A stretch of DNA of 32,085 nt from Chthonomonadaceae bacterium (lineage in GTDB: Bacteria; Armatimonadota; Chthonomonadetes; Chthonomonadales; Chthonomonadaceae): contig DAIDKH010000017.1 in the NCBI GenBank assembly GCA_027450145.1, positions 29,716 to 61,800 of the forward strand. The letters are read 5' to 3'. Shown one piece after another: positions 5,185-20,577 of the stretch. The stretch's first letter is position 1; each line of letters begins with the position of its first letter. The translations under genes were made by a program, and so were the position numbers. The notes beneath the pieces were generated by a model that was not told where the DNA came from, did not search any database, and was given only the letters and a program-made list of their open reading frames with translations.

Positions 5185-5270
5185 AAATAGTGCCAGATTA
5201 GTTAGGTAAGTGCGAGCGAATGTAGCCATCGACAGAATGGTAATTGGCGCCAGAAAGGTGGTATTGCCCG

Positions 5271-5510
5271 ATGCGAAGAGGATTTATACGTAAACCCTCC
5301 ATTACGAAGCGAATTGCGGCTCGAACGTCATGGAAGCGGTACGTGCGTCATAACCTGGGTTTTAAAGCGCCACGAGGTTACGGCTGGATTACAAACCCCA
5401 AAAGGGCCATGTATAACAAAATCTACTACCGCACAAGTCGAGGATGCATGGTGATACCGGTTGTGTTGCTTGCAATATTGCTTGCCGCCACAAATCTACA
5501 CGGATACTAA
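5271..5510 (+). CDS. small basic protein with C-terminal hydrophobic tail, unknown function
   Basis: 79 residues from ATG 5271; AAAGGTGG (5254-5261) lies 9 bases upstream, favouring this start over an in-frame TTG at 5244. The N-terminal 55 residues are very rich in Arg, Lys and Tyr, with segments such as FIRKPSITKRIAART, GYGWITNPKRAMYNKIYY and RTSRG. The last about 20 residues are hydrophobic (MVIPVVLLAILLAATNLHGY), so the protein is likely tail-anchored or attached to the membrane by its C-terminus. The pattern of kPs-aRT-GYGwI-nPk-A-YNK-Y-rT resembles short uncharacterised proteins I recall from Gram-positive and phage genomes, but I cannot confirm that without a search. It is convergent with the helicase gene, 31 bp apart. 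Function unknown. Confidence 0.7.
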   Translation: MRRGFIRKPSITKRIAARTSWKRYVRHNLGFKAPRGYGWITNPKRAMYNKIYYRTSRGCMVIPVVLLAILLAATNLHGY

Positions 5511-5541: not shown

Positions 5542-8500
5542 CTAGATCCTCAGCAATCGACACAACGTAGGCTGCAAACGCGCAGGTATTGCATGTTCAA
5601 GCTCCAAGGTGATTGACATTGGCCTACTACCCTTGTGGCTGACATAATGTGCTGGTCCAAGATACCAGTAAGGCACGGTTCGGTTGTTTCTCGCCTTAAA
5701 ATCGCGTACCGCCAACAGAAGAGTCGTAGGCTTTTCACTCTTCTGCTGATATCGCCTGCCCGTGGTGCTCTCAGGCGAGGTGGTTGACTGAGATTGCCAG
5801 TGGAAAAGCTTATCGTCTATTGCATAGTCCTGGTACATGGTAGTAGGAGAGTATTCGTCTTCCGTCTTGTTTAGCGTTACAAAGAGCAGATCATAATGAT
5901 GGACCTGGTTATAGTACACTCCCTCTCTAACTTCCTTGGGGTTTGCAAGCGTCCAGGCGCCCAAGCCAGCGAGCAATTCGTCGCGAGAGTAGCGCGCATG
6001 CAACTCCAATGCGCTCGGGAAGGATAGACTGACTTGGGGAGGTTCTTCCACCACTAAATCTAATCGCAAGCCTAATAATTCGTGTAACTCCCACAAGAGC
6101 TCAGGATTAGCGCGCAACGTGGCTGCGGCCTCTTCGGCGGACCCAGGCTGCCTGTCACCAAATAGTGAGGCAAAAAGCATATTGAGCGAATAGGCCAGAA
6201 GCGGGTCCTCGTCGTGCATCGCGTCTGTTGTAATCGTCCGAAGCCAGTTGAGTAGACGCTTTAGGTGTGCAGGCCCATCCAGGTGAACGAGCCTGCTAAA
6301 CCCGTCCTCCAGTCGCCTGGCTGTCGCTGTGCGTGTTAGATCCCGCGAAAACGCCTTGTCCTTTGCCCAAGTCCATCCGTGGTTATTCCGATAGACGGTC
6401 TCGAGATTAATTCCGTGGTGCTCCACGAATGCACCTAAAGATAGCGGTTTACCAGTATCGTGTTCAAATGACCGGATCAGTTCTGGGAGACCTCGCATGC
6501 TAAGCGACATTTCGATGTTACGCAGTACATGCTCCATTGCCTGACGGTCTAATTTAATAGAGCAACCCGACGGCAGGTAAGGCAGGCCGTGTTTAAAGTC
6601 TTTAGGCAGCGAAGAAACCGGACGTCCGGTTAAGGCGGCAAAACGCGCGCCGAATCTGAAGTTTCTATTGGCATCACCGATAAAATCAAGCACCGTTAGG
6701 CACTCTTTTTGACGGCTGTGACGAAGACCACGGCCCAATTGTTGAAGAAACACAGTCAGGCTCTCTGTCGGCCTTAGGAATAGCACGGTGTCCACTTCCG
6801 GAATATCTACGCCCTCATTAAACAGATCTACTACAAACAGAAAATTAACTTCACCATTACGTAACTGCTTGCGCAATTCAGCGCGATCCTCACGAGGTGT
6901 ATTCGCAGAGAGTGCTGCCGATGCAATACCCGAACGCGTGAAATAGTCGGCCATAAACTGAGCGTGACGTACCGAAGCGCAGAAACCCAGTCCACGTGCG
7001 CGATGGGGATCTAACAGCTTGTCACGCACCTCACGAACTACAAGTCCGGCACGTTCGATATTGTCGTCTAGAAGCATGCAGAGTTCATTGGGATCGTAAC
7101 GACCCGAAACCCATCGCACGTTGCTAAAATTGACTGCATCGGTGATGCCGAAATACTGAAAAGGGACGAGCAGACCGCGGTTGATTGCGGTAAACAGCCT
7201 AAGTTCAGCAGCAATTCTGCCACCAAAATAGTGAAGAATATCCAGGTTGTCGTGGCGCTCGGGAGTAGCGGTGAGTCCTAATAGGATCTTAGGCTCAAAG
7301 TGCTCTAGAAGCTTGCGGTAGGTGTCCGCGGCTGCGTGGTGGAACTCGTCCACGACGATATAGTCATAGAACGTAGGAGGTAATTGATTGGCTATTTTCC
7401 TTGTGTTAAAGCTCTGAATAGACATAAACACGTGATCAAAACTGTCAGCCGAGTTACCGCCTACCATTAGCTCACCGAAATTGTAATCTTGTAATATGCG
7501 CCGAAAGCAGTCGCGGCTCTGCTGTAAAATCTCCTCCCGATGAGCTACAAATAGTAACCGCGGCCGCCTCGTCTGAGCGTAACTCTTATAGTCGAATGCC
7601 GCAATTACTGTCTTACCGGTACCCGTTGCAGCAACTACTAAGTTGCGCGAATGGTTATGAATGGTCCGTTCGGCATGCAAGCGATCCAAAACTTCCTGTT
7701 GAAAGGGGTATGGACGAATATCAAACTGAAAGTCGGCCTCGTACTCAGTTCCACGGTGTTGCTCGCGAACAAGGGCCTTGCTAAGGTGCTTGGAATCCGC
7801 AGCTACATAGTGCGTCATCCCTTCTGAACGCCAATAAGATTCAAACGTGCCTAACAGCTTGTCCCATAAATGTGGAGATTCACTTTGACTTATGCGTGTA
7901 TTCCATTCCAGACCATCCGTCAACGCCGCACTAGAGATATTCGATGAACCTACATAGGCAGTACCGTATCCGCTGTCACGATGAAACAGATATGCCTTAG
8001 CATGAAGCCTAGTGCTTCGCGTATCATACGAAACGCGGACTTCTGCAGAAGGTAGGTTCGTGAGCATAGTAACGGCTCGTTCGTCAGTCGCCCCCATATA
8101 AGTCGTCGTTATTACTCGCAATGCAGGCTCTGGTAAATGGCGATGAGCTTCACAAAATGCTTGTAACTCGTGCTTGATGAGCCGCAGACCACTCCACTTC
8201 ACAAATGCACATAAAATATCGACGCGGTCAGCAGACTGTAATTCTTGTGCCAACAGAGTCGCTAACGACGGATCAATTGAGGAGCCAGTTAAAAGGTCGC
8301 CTTGGCTTAATCCCAACGATGGCCGCGGACGCGAAGTACTGCCGCGTTCACGGATTTCTATCAGTTTGTTTTCTGTAAAAGCGTTTGGTGGTCCAGCATG
8401 GCCCGCCATAACACTGGGTAGCAGGCCAATAATGTGGTTAGCAGCCTCCAACTGGTTTTGGAGACGATTCGTGGATGGCAGGGATGCAAGAGCGGTCTCC

Positions 8501-8643
8501 AGTAGCCGCTGCACATACCGAGCAAGCAATATGCTGCTTTCAGCCTCGTCAAGTTTGACTGTTTCAATTTGCTTGGCTAGGTTGTTTAATTTACTTCTTA
8601 ACTCGGCATCCACAATGCAGTCGTACAACCCGTCTGGCAGCAA
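5542..8643 (-). CDS. PLD-nuclease-domain SF2 helicase with C-terminal DUF3427
   Basis: 1033 residues. GGAGG at 8656-8652 lies 8 bases before TTG 8643 (5 before TTG 8646); a TTG at 8658 would start before the ribosome-binding site and is less likely. Domains in order: a helical N-terminus (1-110); a phospholipase-D-type nuclease module (about 115-275) with the single HxK motif LHAKAYLF (H214, K216) and YVGSSNISSAAL; a ResIII/DEAD-like helicase with Walker A ATGTGKT (339-345), Walker B VVDEFHH (432-435), motif III TATP (458-461), DLFNEGVDIP and motif VI QQLGRGLR (634-641); and a DUF3427 C-terminus ending with SPTTMYQDYAIDDKLFHWQS. It is probably a DNA-acting ATPase/nuclease in repair or anti-phage defence. 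All helicase motifs are intact. An APH-like kinase gene lies 96 bp upstream on the same strand. Confidence 0.9.
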   Translation of the reverse strand: MLPDGLYDCIVDAELRSKLNNLAKQIETVKLDEAESSILLARYVQRLLETALASLPSTNRLQNQLEAANHIIGLLPSVMAGHAGPPNAFTENKLIEIRERGSTSRPRPSLGLSQGDLLTGSSIDPSLATLLAQELQSADRVDILCAFVKWSGLRLIKHELQAFCEAHRHLPEPALRVITTTYMGATDERAVTMLTNLPSAEVRVSYDTRSTRLHAKAYLFHRDSGYGTAYVGSSNISSAALTDGLEWNTRISQSESPHLWDKLLGTFESYWRSEGMTHYVAADSKHLSKALVREQHRGTEYEADFQFDIRPYPFQQEVLDRLHAERTIHNHSRNLVVAATGTGKTVIAAFDYKSYAQTRRPRLLFVAHREEILQQSRDCFRRILQDYNFGELMVGGNSADSFDHVFMSIQSFNTRKIANQLPPTFYDYIVVDEFHHAAADTYRKLLEHFEPKILLGLTATPERHDNLDILHYFGGRIAAELRLFTAINRGLLVPFQYFGITDAVNFSNVRWVSGRYDPNELCMLLDDNIERAGLVVREVRDKLLDPHRARGLGFCASVRHAQFMADYFTRSGIASAALSANTPREDRAELRKQLRNGEVNFLFVVDLFNEGVDIPEVDTVLFLRPTESLTVFLQQLGRGLRHSRQKECLTVLDFIGDANRNFRFGARFAALTGRPVSSLPKDFKHGLPYLPSGCSIKLDRQAMEHVLRNIEMSLSMRGLPELIRSFEHDTGKPLSLGAFVEHHGINLETVYRNNHGWTWAKDKAFSRDLTRTATARRLEDGFSRLVHLDGPAHLKRLLNWLRTITTDAMHDEDPLLAYSLNMLFASLFGDRQPGSAEEAAATLRANPELLWELHELLGLRLDLVVEEPPQVSLSFPSALELHARYSRDELLAGLGAWTLANPKEVREGVYYNQVHHYDLLFVTLNKTEDEYSPTTMYQDYAIDDKLFHWQSQSTTSPESTTGRRYQQKSEKPTTLLLAVRDFKARNNRTVPYWYLGPAHYVSHKGSRPMSITLELEHAIPARLQPTLCRLLRI

Positions 8644-8676
8644 CAAAAACACCTCCAACTTCGGCTAAATGCTGTG

Positions 8677-8704
8677 ATAGTACCAGTAATTAAATGAGCG
8701 CCAA
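8677..8704 (-). promoter_or_regulatory. possible promoter of the helicase gene
   Basis: On the minus strand TTGGCG (8704-8699), a 16-base spacer and TACTAT (8682-8677), between the kinase stop and the helicase start. If real, the helicase can be transcribed independently of the kinase gene. Confidence 0.35.
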
Positions 8705-8739
8705 CGCCCGGAAATCAACTGTTTGTACTGCAGAGGAAA

Positions 8740-9792
8740 CTAACCAGCCAGTGCCTTCTGCCACACCGCCGACCGGTTGATTATTTCTTGAGGAATTTGG
8801 ATCTCACGATGCAAATCGTTAAAGCCCCTTCGAGCCAATTCATTCGAGTCTAGGTCCACCAGCCATCCACCAAACCACCAAAGTGGCTGTCGGGCGATTG
8901 AGAACGGTAGGATTCTCCTTTCGTCAGCAGTTAGCGGTGGCTGTGCCCGGCTATCGTAGGCGTCTACTAACGCGCACGCATACTCAAGCAAGCCATCCAG
9001 TGGAATACGAGTGCCCAACGTGGCAGTCAGAGCGAAATAGATTGTTCGCGCCAGGTCGTCGGTGCGTGGTGTTCGGCCCATGTAGTCAAAGTCCGCAATA
9101 AGTATGACCTCTGTACCATTGAAAAAGACATTGTTGTCCCAAAAATCCCCATGTGCCCGCTGGTATTTCAGTGCCCCCAGTAGTGGCTGTTCGTCGAATG
9201 CGACGGTTTCGGCCAGGTTTCTTAACGCAGAACGGAGATCCGCTTCTTCTCTGGTAAGAGCCCAGGTTCTCAACCGCATTTCAGCTCTATCAAATGACGG
9301 CAGGATGGCAGCAGACTCAATGTGGTTGGAAAACAATGGTGCATCCGCGTGAACATCCGGCGGTATTTGCGCGAGGACTTCATGCATACGAGCTAACCAG
9401 GGCATCGCTAGTTCTATTCGTTCGGGCGTATCCATTGTCCATTCACTTGGTACGAACGCCTCCACCTCCACCAGGTTTTCCTGGCATCTTACAAACTTCT
9501 CACCAAATGTGGTCTGGTACGGCACTGCACACGGTATGCCAGCGGCAGCAAGAGCTGCACGAGTGGACTGAATTGCATGTAATCGCTGCACCGTTACGGA
9601 GGGTCGATAGACTCGAGCAACTAAGCGTCTATTGTCCGTTTCAAAGTAGATGTTTAGATTAGATGAGCCCCCAAGGTCACGTTCGTTCTGAATGCTGTTA
9701 AAGCCATACTTACTTTGAATAATACCGAGCAGCGATGCACTCAGTGACGGGCGATTACCACGCAGGCCATTACGTGCATTATCGTTGTTCAT
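8740..9792 (-). CDS. aminoglycoside-phosphotransferase-fold (APH) kinase, substrate unknown
   Basis: 350 residues from ATG 9792; no strong ribosome-binding site. The kinase signature is intact: an N-lobe with RRLVARVYRP, the catalytic loop HGDFWDNNVFF (H214, D216, N221) and the metal-binding segment IADFDYMGR (D234/D236), followed by the usual helical C-lobe with LARTIYFAL. The fold covers aminoglycoside kinases, choline kinases, homoserine kinase II, fructosamine kinases and CotS-like spore proteins. The sequence alone does not tell the substrate, and there is no reason to call it a resistance gene. It precedes the PLD-helicase on the same strand, so the two may be co-expressed, though a promoter-like sequence lies between them. 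Confidence 0.82.
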   Translation of the reverse strand: MNNDNARNGLRGNRPSLSASLLGIIQSKYGFNSIQNERDLGGSSNLNIYFETDNRRLVARVYRPSVTVQRLHAIQSTRAALAAAGIPCAVPYQTTFGEKFVRCQENLVEVEAFVPSEWTMDTPERIELAMPWLARMHEVLAQIPPDVHADAPLFSNHIESAAILPSFDRAEMRLRTWALTREEADLRSALRNLAETVAFDEQPLLGALKYQRAHGDFWDNNVFFNGTEVILIADFDYMGRTPRTDDLARTIYFALTATLGTRIPLDGLLEYACALVDAYDSRAQPPLTADERRILPFSIARQPLWWFGGWLVDLDSNELARRGFNDLHREIQIPQEIINRSAVWQKALAG

Positions 9793-17181: not shown

Positions 17182-20100
17182 CTAGCGCAGCAGTGTAACA
17201 TTCGCTTTATCATGGGCCAGCGGAATGCTCCAAACACCTCTCACTAGAGGGTACACGACGGCGGTATGCCATTTTACTGCGCGGTTTGCGGTACTGGTTA
17301 CCTGTACCGCAAGTAGGACATTGTGCGTAACCGACGGCCCGCCAGTGATAGCAAGTCTCACTGCACCATCGCTGGTATTGTAGCGAACGCTTTGAAACTC
17401 ACCGACCTTTAAAGTCATCCATAGCCCCAATGGCGCTATAAAAACTCGTCGATGAAACCCATCCCTAGGTGATATGAGAATAGCGTGTCCTTGGCGGGTG
17501 ACGGCGCAGCCAAACCCCAGCCATCCAAACCGGCGGCTGTGAACCACGTAGGAACCATCATTGCGAGCGTAACCATAAAATGCGATGCCGTAATCTGCAC
17601 TAAACGGATCAAACTTCAACACCGCTGGATCCGCGACAAAGCCGTATGAGGCAAACCCGCTGGGGTAGATGTTCGCCATCAGCTGGTCCATGCCGGCATA
17701 GCCCACACGCAGCAGATACAGGTTGGAAGGGTGTCGTCGGAAATCATCAAGTACAGGAATGGAGTTAATGCCGCTGCCGTAATGATTGGTCATTCGTACT
17801 ATCTGGCGATAGTGACATCCATTCACTGCCCCATCCCAATAGCGCCTGGCCGCACCGTTGTATGCCCAGTTAGGAATTAGAGGCATGTAACCTAGAACCG
17901 CATCTACGGTGACCCGTGCTTTCTCATTTGCTCCAAAGTACCTGCACCAGGTGTAGATCTCTTCCTGCCCGGTTGAGTCCCACGGCATCTCACTGCCAAA
18001 CGGATACCTCCGCGTAACCCAATAGCGCTCCCTGGCGTGCATGAATGCCAGCAACTTGTCCGCGCGTGCGCTCCAGCCTTCCACTTGCATATCGTGAATG
18101 ATCTTGGGGAAGATGCTGCCAACCATTAGCCCAAATTGTGCGTATCCTGGTGCGAACTGTTTAATCGCCATTCCTGTTCTGTAAGCATGGTACAAATACC
18201 AGCTCCAGTTATGTATCAGCTTTAGGTCGGGATGAGTACGCGCGATTCTATACATTGCCCAGTAAACGGCCGCGACATGCGGATAGTTAAATGAGCGCCA
18301 GGTTGTTTCGGACCGCGCTTTATCCCACCCCTCCGTAACTGTGTAGTGGTAGTTAGGAAGAAGATTTGGCTGATAGTAGAATAGACTTGCACGAACTGAA
18401 TAGTTCTTGTTTTGCAGGTGACCCCACAGGCATCTGGAAACGTAGAGGTCGAGTAGATGCACCTCGTGAACATTGGGTCGGTTGGCGTTTTTCATGGCCA
18501 TTCCAACCGAAGGTCCAGCACCAATCTCATCACTTAGCCCAACGAACCAGCTGTTAAACCGTTGTAGCACCATACTCTTAGTCGCGCGGTCGTAGCCTAA
18601 AAAGGAGTCCGTGCGGTGAAAGGGGTCCGAAGGGTCATCGTACCACTGGTGCGACGCCATAAACGAGCCGTATCTAGAAACTTGAACCGTTTCTGGTGGA
18701 GTCACAAAGTATTGAATGTTTTGGGTTGCACCATTATTGTAATGGACAGAAATAAGGCACCGTCCATGAACATGAGCGCTAAGCGCGTATCCCACCCAGC
18801 CGCTGGCTATCTTATGCTTGTATGGAGAGATAGATATAGATGCCCGCGGCGAACAATGTATGGATGTGATTTTGTGGCTTGAATGCACAAACAGCTCAGC
18901 AGGTTGGTTTGTTGGTAGAACATAGCCCGGAATACCCACTACAACTGGCCGCTTACAGGCGATCAGCGTATTCTGGATCTGCTGAACGCCTGGAGATGTG
19001 GCAAATCTGAAGGTGAAATCTGTTGATCCGCCGGGCTGCAATATTCGTTCTGTAGCGGGGTTCCACGGCTGCACGCCTCTCCAGTCATGATGAATGTAGG
19101 CACGGGTACAGCACATCCACTCATAAAAGCCTTCGAAAGTGACGCCTCGCGGAGTAGGATCGTCGTAAAGCGGTCGATAGGCCTCCAGTGGTGTTTGGTG
19201 GTCCGGAAGAACGAGCAGAGCCGGTCCATGACCGTTTAGGCGTGTCACCTGCAGGTAACCACCATCTTCTCCAATGCACGGGTCCGCAAAGGAGCACGTG
19301 TCGTGTGCCTGATTGAGGGTTTTGCCAGAGAGGTCGTTGTTAAACACCATGGCCGCGCCAAACGCACCCAACGTAACCGCATGACGGTGTGGATTGTAAA
19401 ACGTAAAGCGCAGCAGAAGGTGGCCGTCTTTAACTAACCAGCGTCGAACAACACGCACAGGGCAGTTACCAGCAACGGTATCTGTTAGATCATAGGCAGA
19501 AACTGCGCCGGCGGAGTGAATTTGCCGTGCAGCAGCAGCGTTGTGCGAGGTGGAAAACGCTCTCCACTTGCCGCTCGCATCCTTCAGTCTAAATGTGCAG
19601 TCACCAAGATAGTAGTATCCTGGACCTGAACGCGATGCAACTCGGTCACCAGGTAAGAAGTTAAAACCTGAACCAACTGGAGCAAGCCCTGCAGCGCCGC
19701 CCGTAGCCTTGAGCAGTGTTAACCTGAACCCTCCTGCCGTTAACGCGGTCACACCATCCGCGAGGTAACCTTCTGCGTCGGAGGGTTTTGCGCCATAGCT
19801 TTTCGCTTGAGAAGTAAAATCATTGGCAATCTGCGCAGGGGAAAGAGCCTCGCCGTAGACCTTCACAGAGGAGATTACAAGCGAACCGGCCTGCTGCGCT
19901 CCGGTGTACTCGTTTTTAAACTGCACTTTGCCGTCTTGAGCGGTTTGTGCTGCAATGGTAACTGGGGCATTATCCGCCGTATTGATAGCGGTTGTGAGCG
20001 AGCCCTTAAGGAGACCATCGTCGTATATCCTGGCAGTTTTACCGTCATACGTGTACGCCAGCAGATGCCAACGGCCCGCGGACGGCACTCCATTCCACCC

Positions 20101-20577
20101 CAGGTCATCACTCCAGTGCGCCATGGCGCCATAACCGGGATTAGCTCCCCAGCCGAATGCCATCAATGAACCGGTTGGCCCACCTCGCCTGCCCCAGGAA
20201 ATGATCGTCTCCTCGTCCGAATCGATGCTTGGATTGAGTGCCCATACCTCAATCGTGCGAGGATGGTCTCCCACCAATGCCTTAGGAGGCATCGGCCCGA
20301 CGAACGCATCGGTGCGGCCATTGAATGCAACACCCACGGCGCCACGCATATGGACAAGCGTTGGTGCCCCTAACGCAGTGAAGGTGAAATCATCTGAAAC
20401 ATCGTGCCAGGTTTTGGTGCCTGGTACGAACTCCTTGGCACTTAGCGACAGTAGAGGGTCTGGTGCTTGCGCTACGGCAGGGGGTGTAATCAACAGCCCT
20501 ATTATCGCAGCGGTAAAAACCGCGAACATTCCACCTAACGAACGCGATTTCAGCAGATTCATAGCCAGTGGTTTCAT
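17182..20577 (-). CDS. secreted LamG-fold + DUF5695-like protein
   Basis: 1131 residues from ATG 20577, with AGGAA about 7 bases upstream lying over the stop of the preceding gene. Signal peptide about 1-37 (hydrophobic AVFTAAIIGLLI, cleavage near AVAQA). Residues about 40-275 form a concanavalin/LamG-like jelly roll (RTIEVWALNP, GRWHLLAYTYDGKTARIYDDG, VKVYGEALSPAQIANDF). The remaining about 850 residues resemble the DUF5695 family of large extracellular proteins: beta-rich first, then a helical (alpha/alpha)-barrel-like part with many aromatic residues (YSVRASLFYYQPNLLPNYHY, WSWYLYHAYRTG), then a C-terminal beta domain. Such architecture suggests a glycan-binding or glycan-degrading enzyme; I assign no activity. 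It is second in an operon with a GDSL hydrolase (9-bp gap). The DUF5695 call is from memory of the family. Confidence 0.78.
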   Translation of the reverse strand: MKPLAMNLLKSRSLGGMFAVFTAAIIGLLITPPAVAQAPDPLLSLSAKEFVPGTKTWHDVSDDFTFTALGAPTLVHMRGAVGVAFNGRTDAFVGPMPPKALVGDHPRTIEVWALNPSIDSDEETIISWGRRGGPTGSLMAFGWGANPGYGAMAHWSDDLGWNGVPSAGRWHLLAYTYDGKTARIYDDGLLKGSLTTAINTADNAPVTIAAQTAQDGKVQFKNEYTGAQQAGSLVISSVKVYGEALSPAQIANDFTSQAKSYGAKPSDAEGYLADGVTALTAGGFRLTLLKATGGAAGLAPVGSGFNFLPGDRVASRSGPGYYYLGDCTFRLKDASGKWRAFSTSHNAAAARQIHSAGAVSAYDLTDTVAGNCPVRVVRRWLVKDGHLLLRFTFYNPHRHAVTLGAFGAAMVFNNDLSGKTLNQAHDTCSFADPCIGEDGGYLQVTRLNGHGPALLVLPDHQTPLEAYRPLYDDPTPRGVTFEGFYEWMCCTRAYIHHDWRGVQPWNPATERILQPGGSTDFTFRFATSPGVQQIQNTLIACKRPVVVGIPGYVLPTNQPAELFVHSSHKITSIHCSPRASISISPYKHKIASGWVGYALSAHVHGRCLISVHYNNGATQNIQYFVTPPETVQVSRYGSFMASHQWYDDPSDPFHRTDSFLGYDRATKSMVLQRFNSWFVGLSDEIGAGPSVGMAMKNANRPNVHEVHLLDLYVSRCLWGHLQNKNYSVRASLFYYQPNLLPNYHYTVTEGWDKARSETTWRSFNYPHVAAVYWAMYRIARTHPDLKLIHNWSWYLYHAYRTGMAIKQFAPGYAQFGLMVGSIFPKIIHDMQVEGWSARADKLLAFMHARERYWVTRRYPFGSEMPWDSTGQEEIYTWCRYFGANEKARVTVDAVLGYMPLIPNWAYNGAARRYWDGAVNGCHYRQIVRMTNHYGSGINSIPVLDDFRRHPSNLYLLRVGYAGMDQLMANIYPSGFASYGFVADPAVLKFDPFSADYGIAFYGYARNDGSYVVHSRRFGWLGFGCAVTRQGHAILISPRDGFHRRVFIAPLGLWMTLKVGEFQSVRYNTSDGAVRLAITGGPSVTHNVLLAVQVTSTANRAVKWHTAVVYPLVRGVWSIPLAHDKANVTLLR

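What the first reader, a model, noticed from the sequence alone, without database searches (positions are those of the whole stretch)
5542..9792. PLD-helicase-DUF3427 protein paired with an APH-fold kinase
The sequence shows a 1033-residue fusion of an HxK-type nuclease module, a complete SF2 helicase and DUF3427, preceded on the same strand by an intact APH-fold kinase. Nuclease-helicase fusions of this kind recur in defence and repair loci. Whether the kinase belongs to the system is unknown; a co-conserved kinase would be a new two-gene arrangement.
Basis: partly seen in the sequence, partly recalled or inferred. Interest (0 to 1): 0.5.

Follow-up and report, generated by a model that had tools for sequence, protein, structure and literature searches.

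The report
SauUSI-like restriction enzyme with partner kinase
The helicase-nuclease protein looks like a known type of enzyme that shreds foreign DNA carrying modified bases, and in a small group of bacteria it is found next to a particular kinase of unknown role, so the two may work together.

Summary
Window 5542-8643 (-) encodes a 1033-aa PLD nuclease-SF2 helicase-DUF3427 protein; 96 bp upstream, 8740-9792 (-) encodes an intact 350-aa APH-fold kinase. The large protein is a SauUSI-like Type IV (modified-DNA-dependent) restriction enzyme: PADLOC mREase_IV, E=2e-237; SauUSI (7clg) is Foldseek's best match and the only row shown that spans residues 113-1029. That part is known. The kinase is the new part. 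A close homologue (E<=1e-12) occurs in 4 of 291 genomes of the phylum, each time directly upstream of the restriction gene on the same strand, in two genera and two unrelated chromosomal places. Of the other 27 phylum genomes with the enzyme (31 of 291), none shows an adjacent APH gene, two being untestable. Thirty copies from a Bacillota sample showed none either. So the pairing is real but lineage-specific, probably gained once, and not in a defence island. The kinase's substrate is unknown; its fold is nearest small-molecule kinases. Best reading: a modified-DNA-dependent restriction enzyme with a dedicated accessory kinase, the functional link being inferred only from co-conservation.

The parts
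5542..8643 (-). SauUSI-like Type IV restriction enzyme, 1033 aa, TTG start
8314..8643 (-). N-terminal helical region, residues 1-110, outside the alignment with SauUSI, no Pfam hit, aligned in most relatives
   Evidence: (SauUSI aligns from residue 113)
7804..8307 (-). PLD nuclease domain, about residues 113-280; HxK at 7996-8004
   Evidence: PLDc_2 and RE_NgoFVII; H214, K216, N235, E246 invariant in 47
6655..7719 (-). SF2 helicase-like ATPase, residues 309-663
   Evidence: ResIII and Helicase_C; motifs
5575..6018 (-). DUF3427 target-recognition domain (SRA-like by homology to SauUSI), residues 876-1023
   Evidence: PF11907 E=5e-21; D939 and W949, aligned with SauUSI D858 and W868, invariant in 47
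8652..8656 (-). GGAGG Shine-Dalgarno-like site 8 nt before the TTG start
   Evidence: read
8644..8739 (-). 96-bp gap between kinase stop and restriction gene; 120, 93 and 96 bp in G001, G002 and G010
8740..9792 (-). APH-fold kinase, 350 aa, ATG start
9130..9153 (-). Kinase catalytic loop HGDFWDNN (residues 214-221)
   Evidence: invariant in four copies; coordinates

Best explanation
The large protein is a single-chain, SauUSI-like Type IV restriction enzyme. Its DUF3427 (SRA-like) domain binds modified cytosine in incoming DNA, the SF2 motor then hydrolyses ATP and moves along the DNA, and paired PLD domains cut both strands. The upstream kinase is a lineage-specific accessory gene that belongs to the same cassette. 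Shown here: architecture, family, intact motifs, and co-conservation of the pair in two genera and two chromosomal settings. Inferred by homology to SauUSI: modified-DNA dependence, translocation and shredding. Inferred only from co-conservation: that the kinase serves the enzyme. For its action I favour a small-molecule kinase (nucleotide, sugar or similar, about 0.35) over a protein kinase that switches the nuclease (about 0.3); most of the rest goes to a passenger role.
For: PADLOC mREase_IV PDLC03659 covers residues 106-1022 at E=2.4e-237 and matches 47 of 47 aligned proteins. SauUSI 7clg is the top PDB sequence hit (E=1.6e-82) and the top Foldseek hit (E=3.2e-46); VIA aligns 782 residues over 113-1029, Z 24.8, rmsd 14.4, the only row shown that spans the protein. 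Catalytic and two pocket residues invariant. Kinase homologue at E<=1e-12 in 4 of 291 phylum genomes, one copy each, always just upstream of the enzyme on the same strand. Flanks syntenic within the genus but unrelated in G010. Both genes show the same flat divergence: enzyme identity 63-72% and kinase 44-58% in all six genome pairs, while InfB ranges from 69 to 96%. The four paired enzymes form one clade, SH-aLRT 100. Accessory genes beside such enzymes are not unheard of: 7 of 78 neighbour frames in the Bacillota sample are NUDIX hydrolases.
Against: No experiment. Only two independent genomic settings and one clade. Of the other 27 enzyme-bearing phylum genomes none has an adjacent APH kinase (25 testable), so the enzyme family does not need it. 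Branching order in the clade agrees with the species (G010 outside the three congeners, support 82), so vertical descent with rearrangement is not excluded. The correlation of enzyme and kinase identities over six pairs is not significant (r=0.69, p=0.13). A gap of 93-120 bp allows separate transcription, and the promoter and terminator scan was at shuffle level. The Glu of the H(X)K(X)4E motif reported for SauUSI is H221 here, and the methyl-contacting Tyr831 aligns with V909.
Confidence: 0.6

Rival explanations
1. The kinase is a passenger: a small-molecule kinase (metabolic or resistance) that once landed beside the enzyme and stayed by vertical descent.
For: One clade only, support 100, and branching order agrees with species; three of the four loci are syntenic copies of one setting; fold closest to metabolic kinases; the kinase changes faster than the enzyme.
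Against: The pair persists in a second, unrelated setting in another genus; no close homologue of the kinase (E<=1e-12) was found without the enzyme in 291 genomes; catalytic residues are invariant.
Confidence: 0.25
2. The kinase phosphorylates the restriction enzyme or a bound partner and acts as its brake or licence.
For: Tight same-strand co-conservation; the APH fold includes E. coli YihE (1zyl, Z 20.4), a Ser/Thr protein kinase by recall; kinase-bearing defence systems such as PglW exist (passages of PMC12839542).
Against: Nearest folds are mostly small-molecule kinases (Z 24-25); no adjacent APH kinase was seen for the other relatives examined.
Confidence: 0.3
3. The large protein is a housekeeping repair helicase of the RadD/XPB kind rather than a restriction enzyme.
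For: Its helicase core aligns with RadD at Z 30.7, above SauUSI's 24.8; flanks are mostly housekeeping genes.
Against: RadD NCBIfam model 104.8 bits against a cut-off of 720; RadD covers only residues 308-740; PLD and DUF3427 domains with invariant residues; patchy distribution, 31 of 291 genomes; enzyme identity does not rise with InfB identity (Pearson -0.10, Spearman -0.20 over 130 pairs).
Confidence: 0.04

Closest known systems
SauUSI (Staphylococcus aureus, PDB 7clg)
   Same: Single chain PLD nuclease - SF2 ATPase - helical coupler - SRA/DUF3427; HxK, GSSN and a downstream E of the nuclease; pocket Asp858 and Trp868 conserved
   Different: 27% identical over the aligned part; extra helical N-terminal 110 residues; E126 replaced by His, Tyr831 by Val; a kinase gene upstream, which the parts I read on SauUSI do not mention
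PADLOC mREase_IV (PDLC03659)
   Same: Nearly full-length match, shared by all 47 proteins scanned
   Different: A single-protein profile; the kinase has no PADLOC hit at E<=0.01
N-acetylhexosamine 1-kinase NahK (4ocj) and homoserine kinase (2ppq)
   Same: Whole-fold match of the kinase model, Z 25.4 and 24.1, close to tied
   Different: 16 and 20% identity; homoserine-kinase model NF003558 far below its cut-off (41.6 against 271); no PDB sequence hit at E<=0.01
SauUSI homologues with MutT/NUDIX neighbours
   Same: SauUSI-like enzyme with a small enzyme gene beside it (figure legend of PMC7641849; 7 of 78 neighbour frames NUDIX)
   Different: NUDIX hydrolase, not an APH kinase; none by a strict NUDIX pattern in 30 Armatimonadota loci
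BREX type 2 / Pgl (PglW kinase)
   Same: Kinase and nuclease/helicase parts in one defence system (passages of PMC12839542)
   Different: PglW carries S/T/Y-kinase modules fused to a NERD nuclease; no other BREX gene seen among the window proteins scanned

Membership tests
SauUSI-like Type IV restriction enzymes (mREase_IV) | Order PLD nuclease - SF2 ATPase - coupler - DUF3427/SRA in one chain | tested here: met
SauUSI-like Type IV restriction enzymes (mREase_IV) | PLD active-site HxK with downstream N and E | tested here: met
   H214, K216, N235, E246 invariant in 47
SauUSI itself (exact H(X)K(X)4E motif of PMC7913695) | Glu five residues after the Lys | tested here: not met
   H221 here; H, Y, K, R, W or I are the commonest in 47. 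So this is a SauUSI-like subfamily and is not called a SauUSI orthologue
SauUSI-like Type IV restriction enzymes (mREase_IV) | Intact SF2 motor motifs | tested here: met
SauUSI-like Type IV restriction enzymes (mREase_IV) | Modified-cytosine pocket residues (SauUSI D858, W868, F841, I842, Y831) | tested here: inconclusive
   D939 and W949 invariant, F921 and V922 similar, Y831 aligns with V909; the pairwise alignment there is weak
SauUSI-like Type IV restriction enzymes (mREase_IV) | ATP- and modification-dependent cleavage; dimer | not testable with these tools
   needs purified protein
APH superfamily (PF01636) | Score above gathering cut-off, catalytic HGDxxxxN and DFD | tested here: met
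Homoserine kinase ThrB type II (NF003558) | Score above curated cut-off | tested here: not met
   41.6 bits against 271
RadD repair helicase (NF053632) | Score above curated cut-off | tested here: not met
   104.8 bits against 720
Defence island | Other defence genes beside the pair | tested here: not met
   PADLOC scans of window neighbours and of 11 G010 neighbours gave only matches to shared domains: rsmA to mad2, recD2 to RecD-type helicases, trypsin-like proteases to RT-Protease

The most novel reading that the evidence does not exclude
The kinase directly widens what the enzyme can restrict: it phosphorylates a sugar or hydroxyl group on phage nucleotides or hypermodified DNA bases (SauUSI acts on hm5C but not on glucosylated hm5C, Table 1 of PMC3874153), undoing the phage's shield or creating the mark that DUF3427 reads. 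That would be a two-gene, modification-remodelling Type IV system.
Probability: 0.05. Interest if true: 0.8.

Novelty: new variant of a known kind. Interest (0 to 1): 0.38.

Why it matters
SauUSI works as a single protein against modified DNA. A kinase that stays with one clade of such enzymes through a change of chromosomal location suggests that some of them have a phosphotransferase partner; I found no report of this in the open-access library searched (listings). It offers a small, testable two-gene cassette, and, with the NUDIX genes beside some Bacillota relatives, a hint that these enzymes recruit nucleotide- or small-molecule-acting helpers. If the kinase proves a passenger, the locus is an ordinary Type IV enzyme.

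Tried and rejected
Tried and of little use: synonymous divergence as a test of transfer, because synonymous sites are near saturation between congeners in most genes. Empty-site test: in G010 rsmA and infB lie on different contigs without the pair, and recD2 of seven other family genomes has no pair within about 1.5 kb, but the further flanks are not conserved, so no clean empty site was obtained. Horizontal transfer of the pair between genera: the changed location and flat identities favour it, the tree order does not require it. Viral contigs: no confirmed relative of kinase or enzyme. Phage records: no kinase at E<=1e-3; 8 records with the enzyme at E<=1e-40, none annotated. Plasmids: one distant kinase (21.7% identity); 19 records with the enzyme at E<=1e-60, of which I opened three and saw no kinase beside it in the (incomplete) gene tables. 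Promoter and terminator scans were at shuffle level. A host C5-methyltransferase as the reason for a brake: none in G000-G002 (G002 only 74% complete), one partial match in G010, three in G005, which has the enzyme without the kinase; this does not support it. Absence of an APH gene in the Bacillota flanks rests on a four-sequence kinase profile and a motif pattern, less sensitive than Pfam; the Pfam scan of 78 neighbour frames lists only its 25 commonest of 131 families, without APH among them. The N-terminal 110 residues were not folded alone; Pfam found nothing. Families missing from the VIA lists are not excluded by that.
Full report
What is there. The window is G000:C17:29716-61800 of an unnamed 4.1-Mb genome. 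On the minus strand lie a 350-aa kinase (8740-9792) and, 96 bp downstream of it, a 1033-aa protein (5542-8643). The start of the second is the TTG at 8643: a GGAGG lies 8 nt before it, and G001, G002 and G010 have ATG, TTG and ATG at the homologous codon.

The large protein. Pfam gives PLDc_2, ResIII, Helicase_C and DUF3427. PADLOC gives Type IV methyl-directed restriction enzyme, PDLC03659, E=2.4e-237 over residues 106-1022. The best PDB sequence match is 7clg (SauUSI), E=1.6e-82. An AlphaFold model from 47 aligned proteins (mean pLDDT 86, pTM 0.67) has SauUSI as Foldseek's first hit (E=3.2e-46). By VIA 782 residues align over 113-1029, Z 24.8, rmsd 14.4 (the domains are placed differently); motor-only matches such as RadD score higher (Z 30.7) but cover residues 308-740 at most. 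In all 47, H214, K216, N235 and E246 of the nuclease and D939 and W949 of the DUF3427 domain are invariant, and the motor motifs are invariant or nearly so. By the alignment, D939 and W949 correspond to SauUSI D858 and W868, which are modelled to contact and stack on the flipped methylcytosine (PMC7913695; sections 24 and 25 read in full). Two SauUSI features differ: E126 is H221 here, and Y831 aligns with V909. Residues 1-110 are a helical region outside the SauUSI alignment and unknown to Pfam.

The kinase. APH PF01636 at 69.4 bits; HGDFWDNN and ADFD are invariant in four copies. A model from the four sequences (mean pLDDT 80) matches NahK (4ocj, Z 25.4), an Alicyclobacillus APH (4pdy, 24.3), homoserine kinase (2ppq, 24.1) and aminopropanol kinase (6ef6, 23.7), then E. 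coli YihE (1zyl, 20.4). These do not fix the substrate. PADLOC has no hit at E<=0.01.

Co-conservation. In 291 genomes of the phylum, 31 have a match to the enzyme at E<=1e-60, a few of them partial, and 4 have the kinase at E<=1e-12. All four kinases lie directly upstream of the enzyme on the same strand: G000, G001, G002 (one genus) and G010 (another genus of the family); in G002 the kinase is cut by the contig end. At looser cut-offs other APH proteins appear (best E=9e-10 in G038), none beside a full-length enzyme. A scan of the 31 genomes with the Pfam APH model finds no APH gene next to the other 27 enzymes. The nearest is 4.8 kb away on the other strand in G111; a match below the cut-off lies 9 kb away in G006. 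In G106 and G111 the contig begins at the enzyme gene, so upstream adjacency could not be seen, and in G223 only about 0.85 kb is left. In 398 genomes drawn from the phylum of G294 (the genome of the Oscillospiraceae locus L051), 29 carry 30 copies at E<=1e-120. No kinase was found in flanks of up to 1.5 kb by the four-kinase profile or an APH motif; five of the 30 have under 1.2 kb upstream, one of them none. Four further named-genome loci (L047, L048, L049, L052) have no APH match on the same contig, nor has L051, which is G294 again (read against contig lengths).

History. Within the first genus the flanks are the same: GH10 xylanase, two tRNAs and rsmA on one side and, where the contig reaches (G001), prepilin, DHH, rbfA and infB on the other. 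In G010 the pair sits between recD2 and an FHA-trypsin gene; the 20-kb rsmA and infB regions of G010 do not hold it, and recD2 in seven other genomes of the family has no pair within about 1.5 kb. Identities between the four are flat (enzyme 63-72%, kinase 44-58%) while InfB ranges from 69 to 96%. Non-synonymous divergence to G010 is 1.3-1.4 times that to G001 for the pair, but 3 to 19 times for seven other genes: rsmA 3.0, G5-3D 4.0, nusA 4.5, DHH 4.7, rbfA 6.5, infB 8.6, the 93-aa gene 19 (ratios taken from the table). This shared departure fits the two genes moving or diversifying together. Against a strong claim of transfer, the tree (quick method) puts G010 outside the three congeners (support 82), as species order would. 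Counting conservatively there are two independent settings and one gain of the kinase at the base of a clade with support 100.

Context. PADLOC matches among the neighbours are to shared domains only: rsmA to mad2, a DegP-like protease and a G010 neighbour to RT-Protease, recD2 to several helicase profiles; Pfam reads them as housekeeping or general enzymes. Other members of the enzyme family can sit in richer company: UvrD-PDDEXK in G246 and a DruE-like MZB fragment in G256; and among 78 neighbour frames of the Bacillota sample, 7 NUDIX hydrolases, one McrBC component and one Wadjet JetA. Three NUDIX frames found by a strict pattern lie next to the enzyme on the same strand, overlapping it by 11 bp or 2 to 6 bp away (L078, L086, L047).

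Literature. Searches listed no paper whose title or abstract start describes a SauUSI-like enzyme with a kinase; they cover only the held open-access library. Passages of PMC7159879 report a few APH-type kinases among conflict-system effectors and DUF3427 as a predicted modified-DNA binder. A figure legend in PMC7641849 shows MutT homologues beside SauUSI homologues in Streptococcus. PMC3874153 and PMC12839542 were seen as passages.

Verdict. Family assignment of the enzyme: about 0.93. Functional link of the kinase: about 0.65 to 0.7. Kinase mechanism: open, with small-molecule action slightly ahead of protein phosphorylation. The added neighbour scans did not change these odds.

Noticed in passing
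L078:1056-1478, L086:1096-1482, L047:9162-9548: NUDIX hydrolase genes abut SauUSI-like enzymes in Bacillota; Pfam finds 7 NUDIX among 78 neighbour frames. A recurrent partner, noted for Streptococcus in a legend of PMC7641849.
   Followed up: partly
window 5244-5510 (+): 88-aa frame convergent with the restriction gene, 79% and 70% identical in G001 and G002 with far fewer non-synonymous than synonymous changes and no Pfam hit: probably a real small unknown gene of this genus.
   Followed up: partly
G000, G001, G002 against L034:6680-8959: recD2 found at E<=1e-100 in 8 of 17 family genomes but in none of the three genomes of the window's genus, two of which are over 90% complete.
   Followed up: no
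L103, L092, L100: Three copies of the enzyme (in G364, G530, G529) carry one in-frame stop each: decayed copies or sequencing error.
   Followed up: no
window 8314-8643 (-), residues 1-110 of the restriction enzyme: Helical N-terminal region aligned across Armatimonadota, Bacillota and one Thermoplasmata relative, outside the SauUSI alignment and without a Pfam family.
   Followed up: partly
G005 (L038, L182, L184, L185): A genome with a kinase-less SauUSI-like enzyme and three matches to C5-cytosine methyltransferase: useful for working out which methylated sites this subfamily ignores.
   Followed up: no
window 17182-20577 (-): 1131-aa DUF5695 protein with a Laminin_G domain, between nusA and a GDSL lipase frame.
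   Followed up: no
MT837245.1, MT835817.1, MT836409.1 (H21-H23): Unannotated faecal 'Bacteriophage sp.' records hold relatives covering 92-100% of the restriction enzyme; whether they are true phage genes or host DNA is untested.
   Followed up: no
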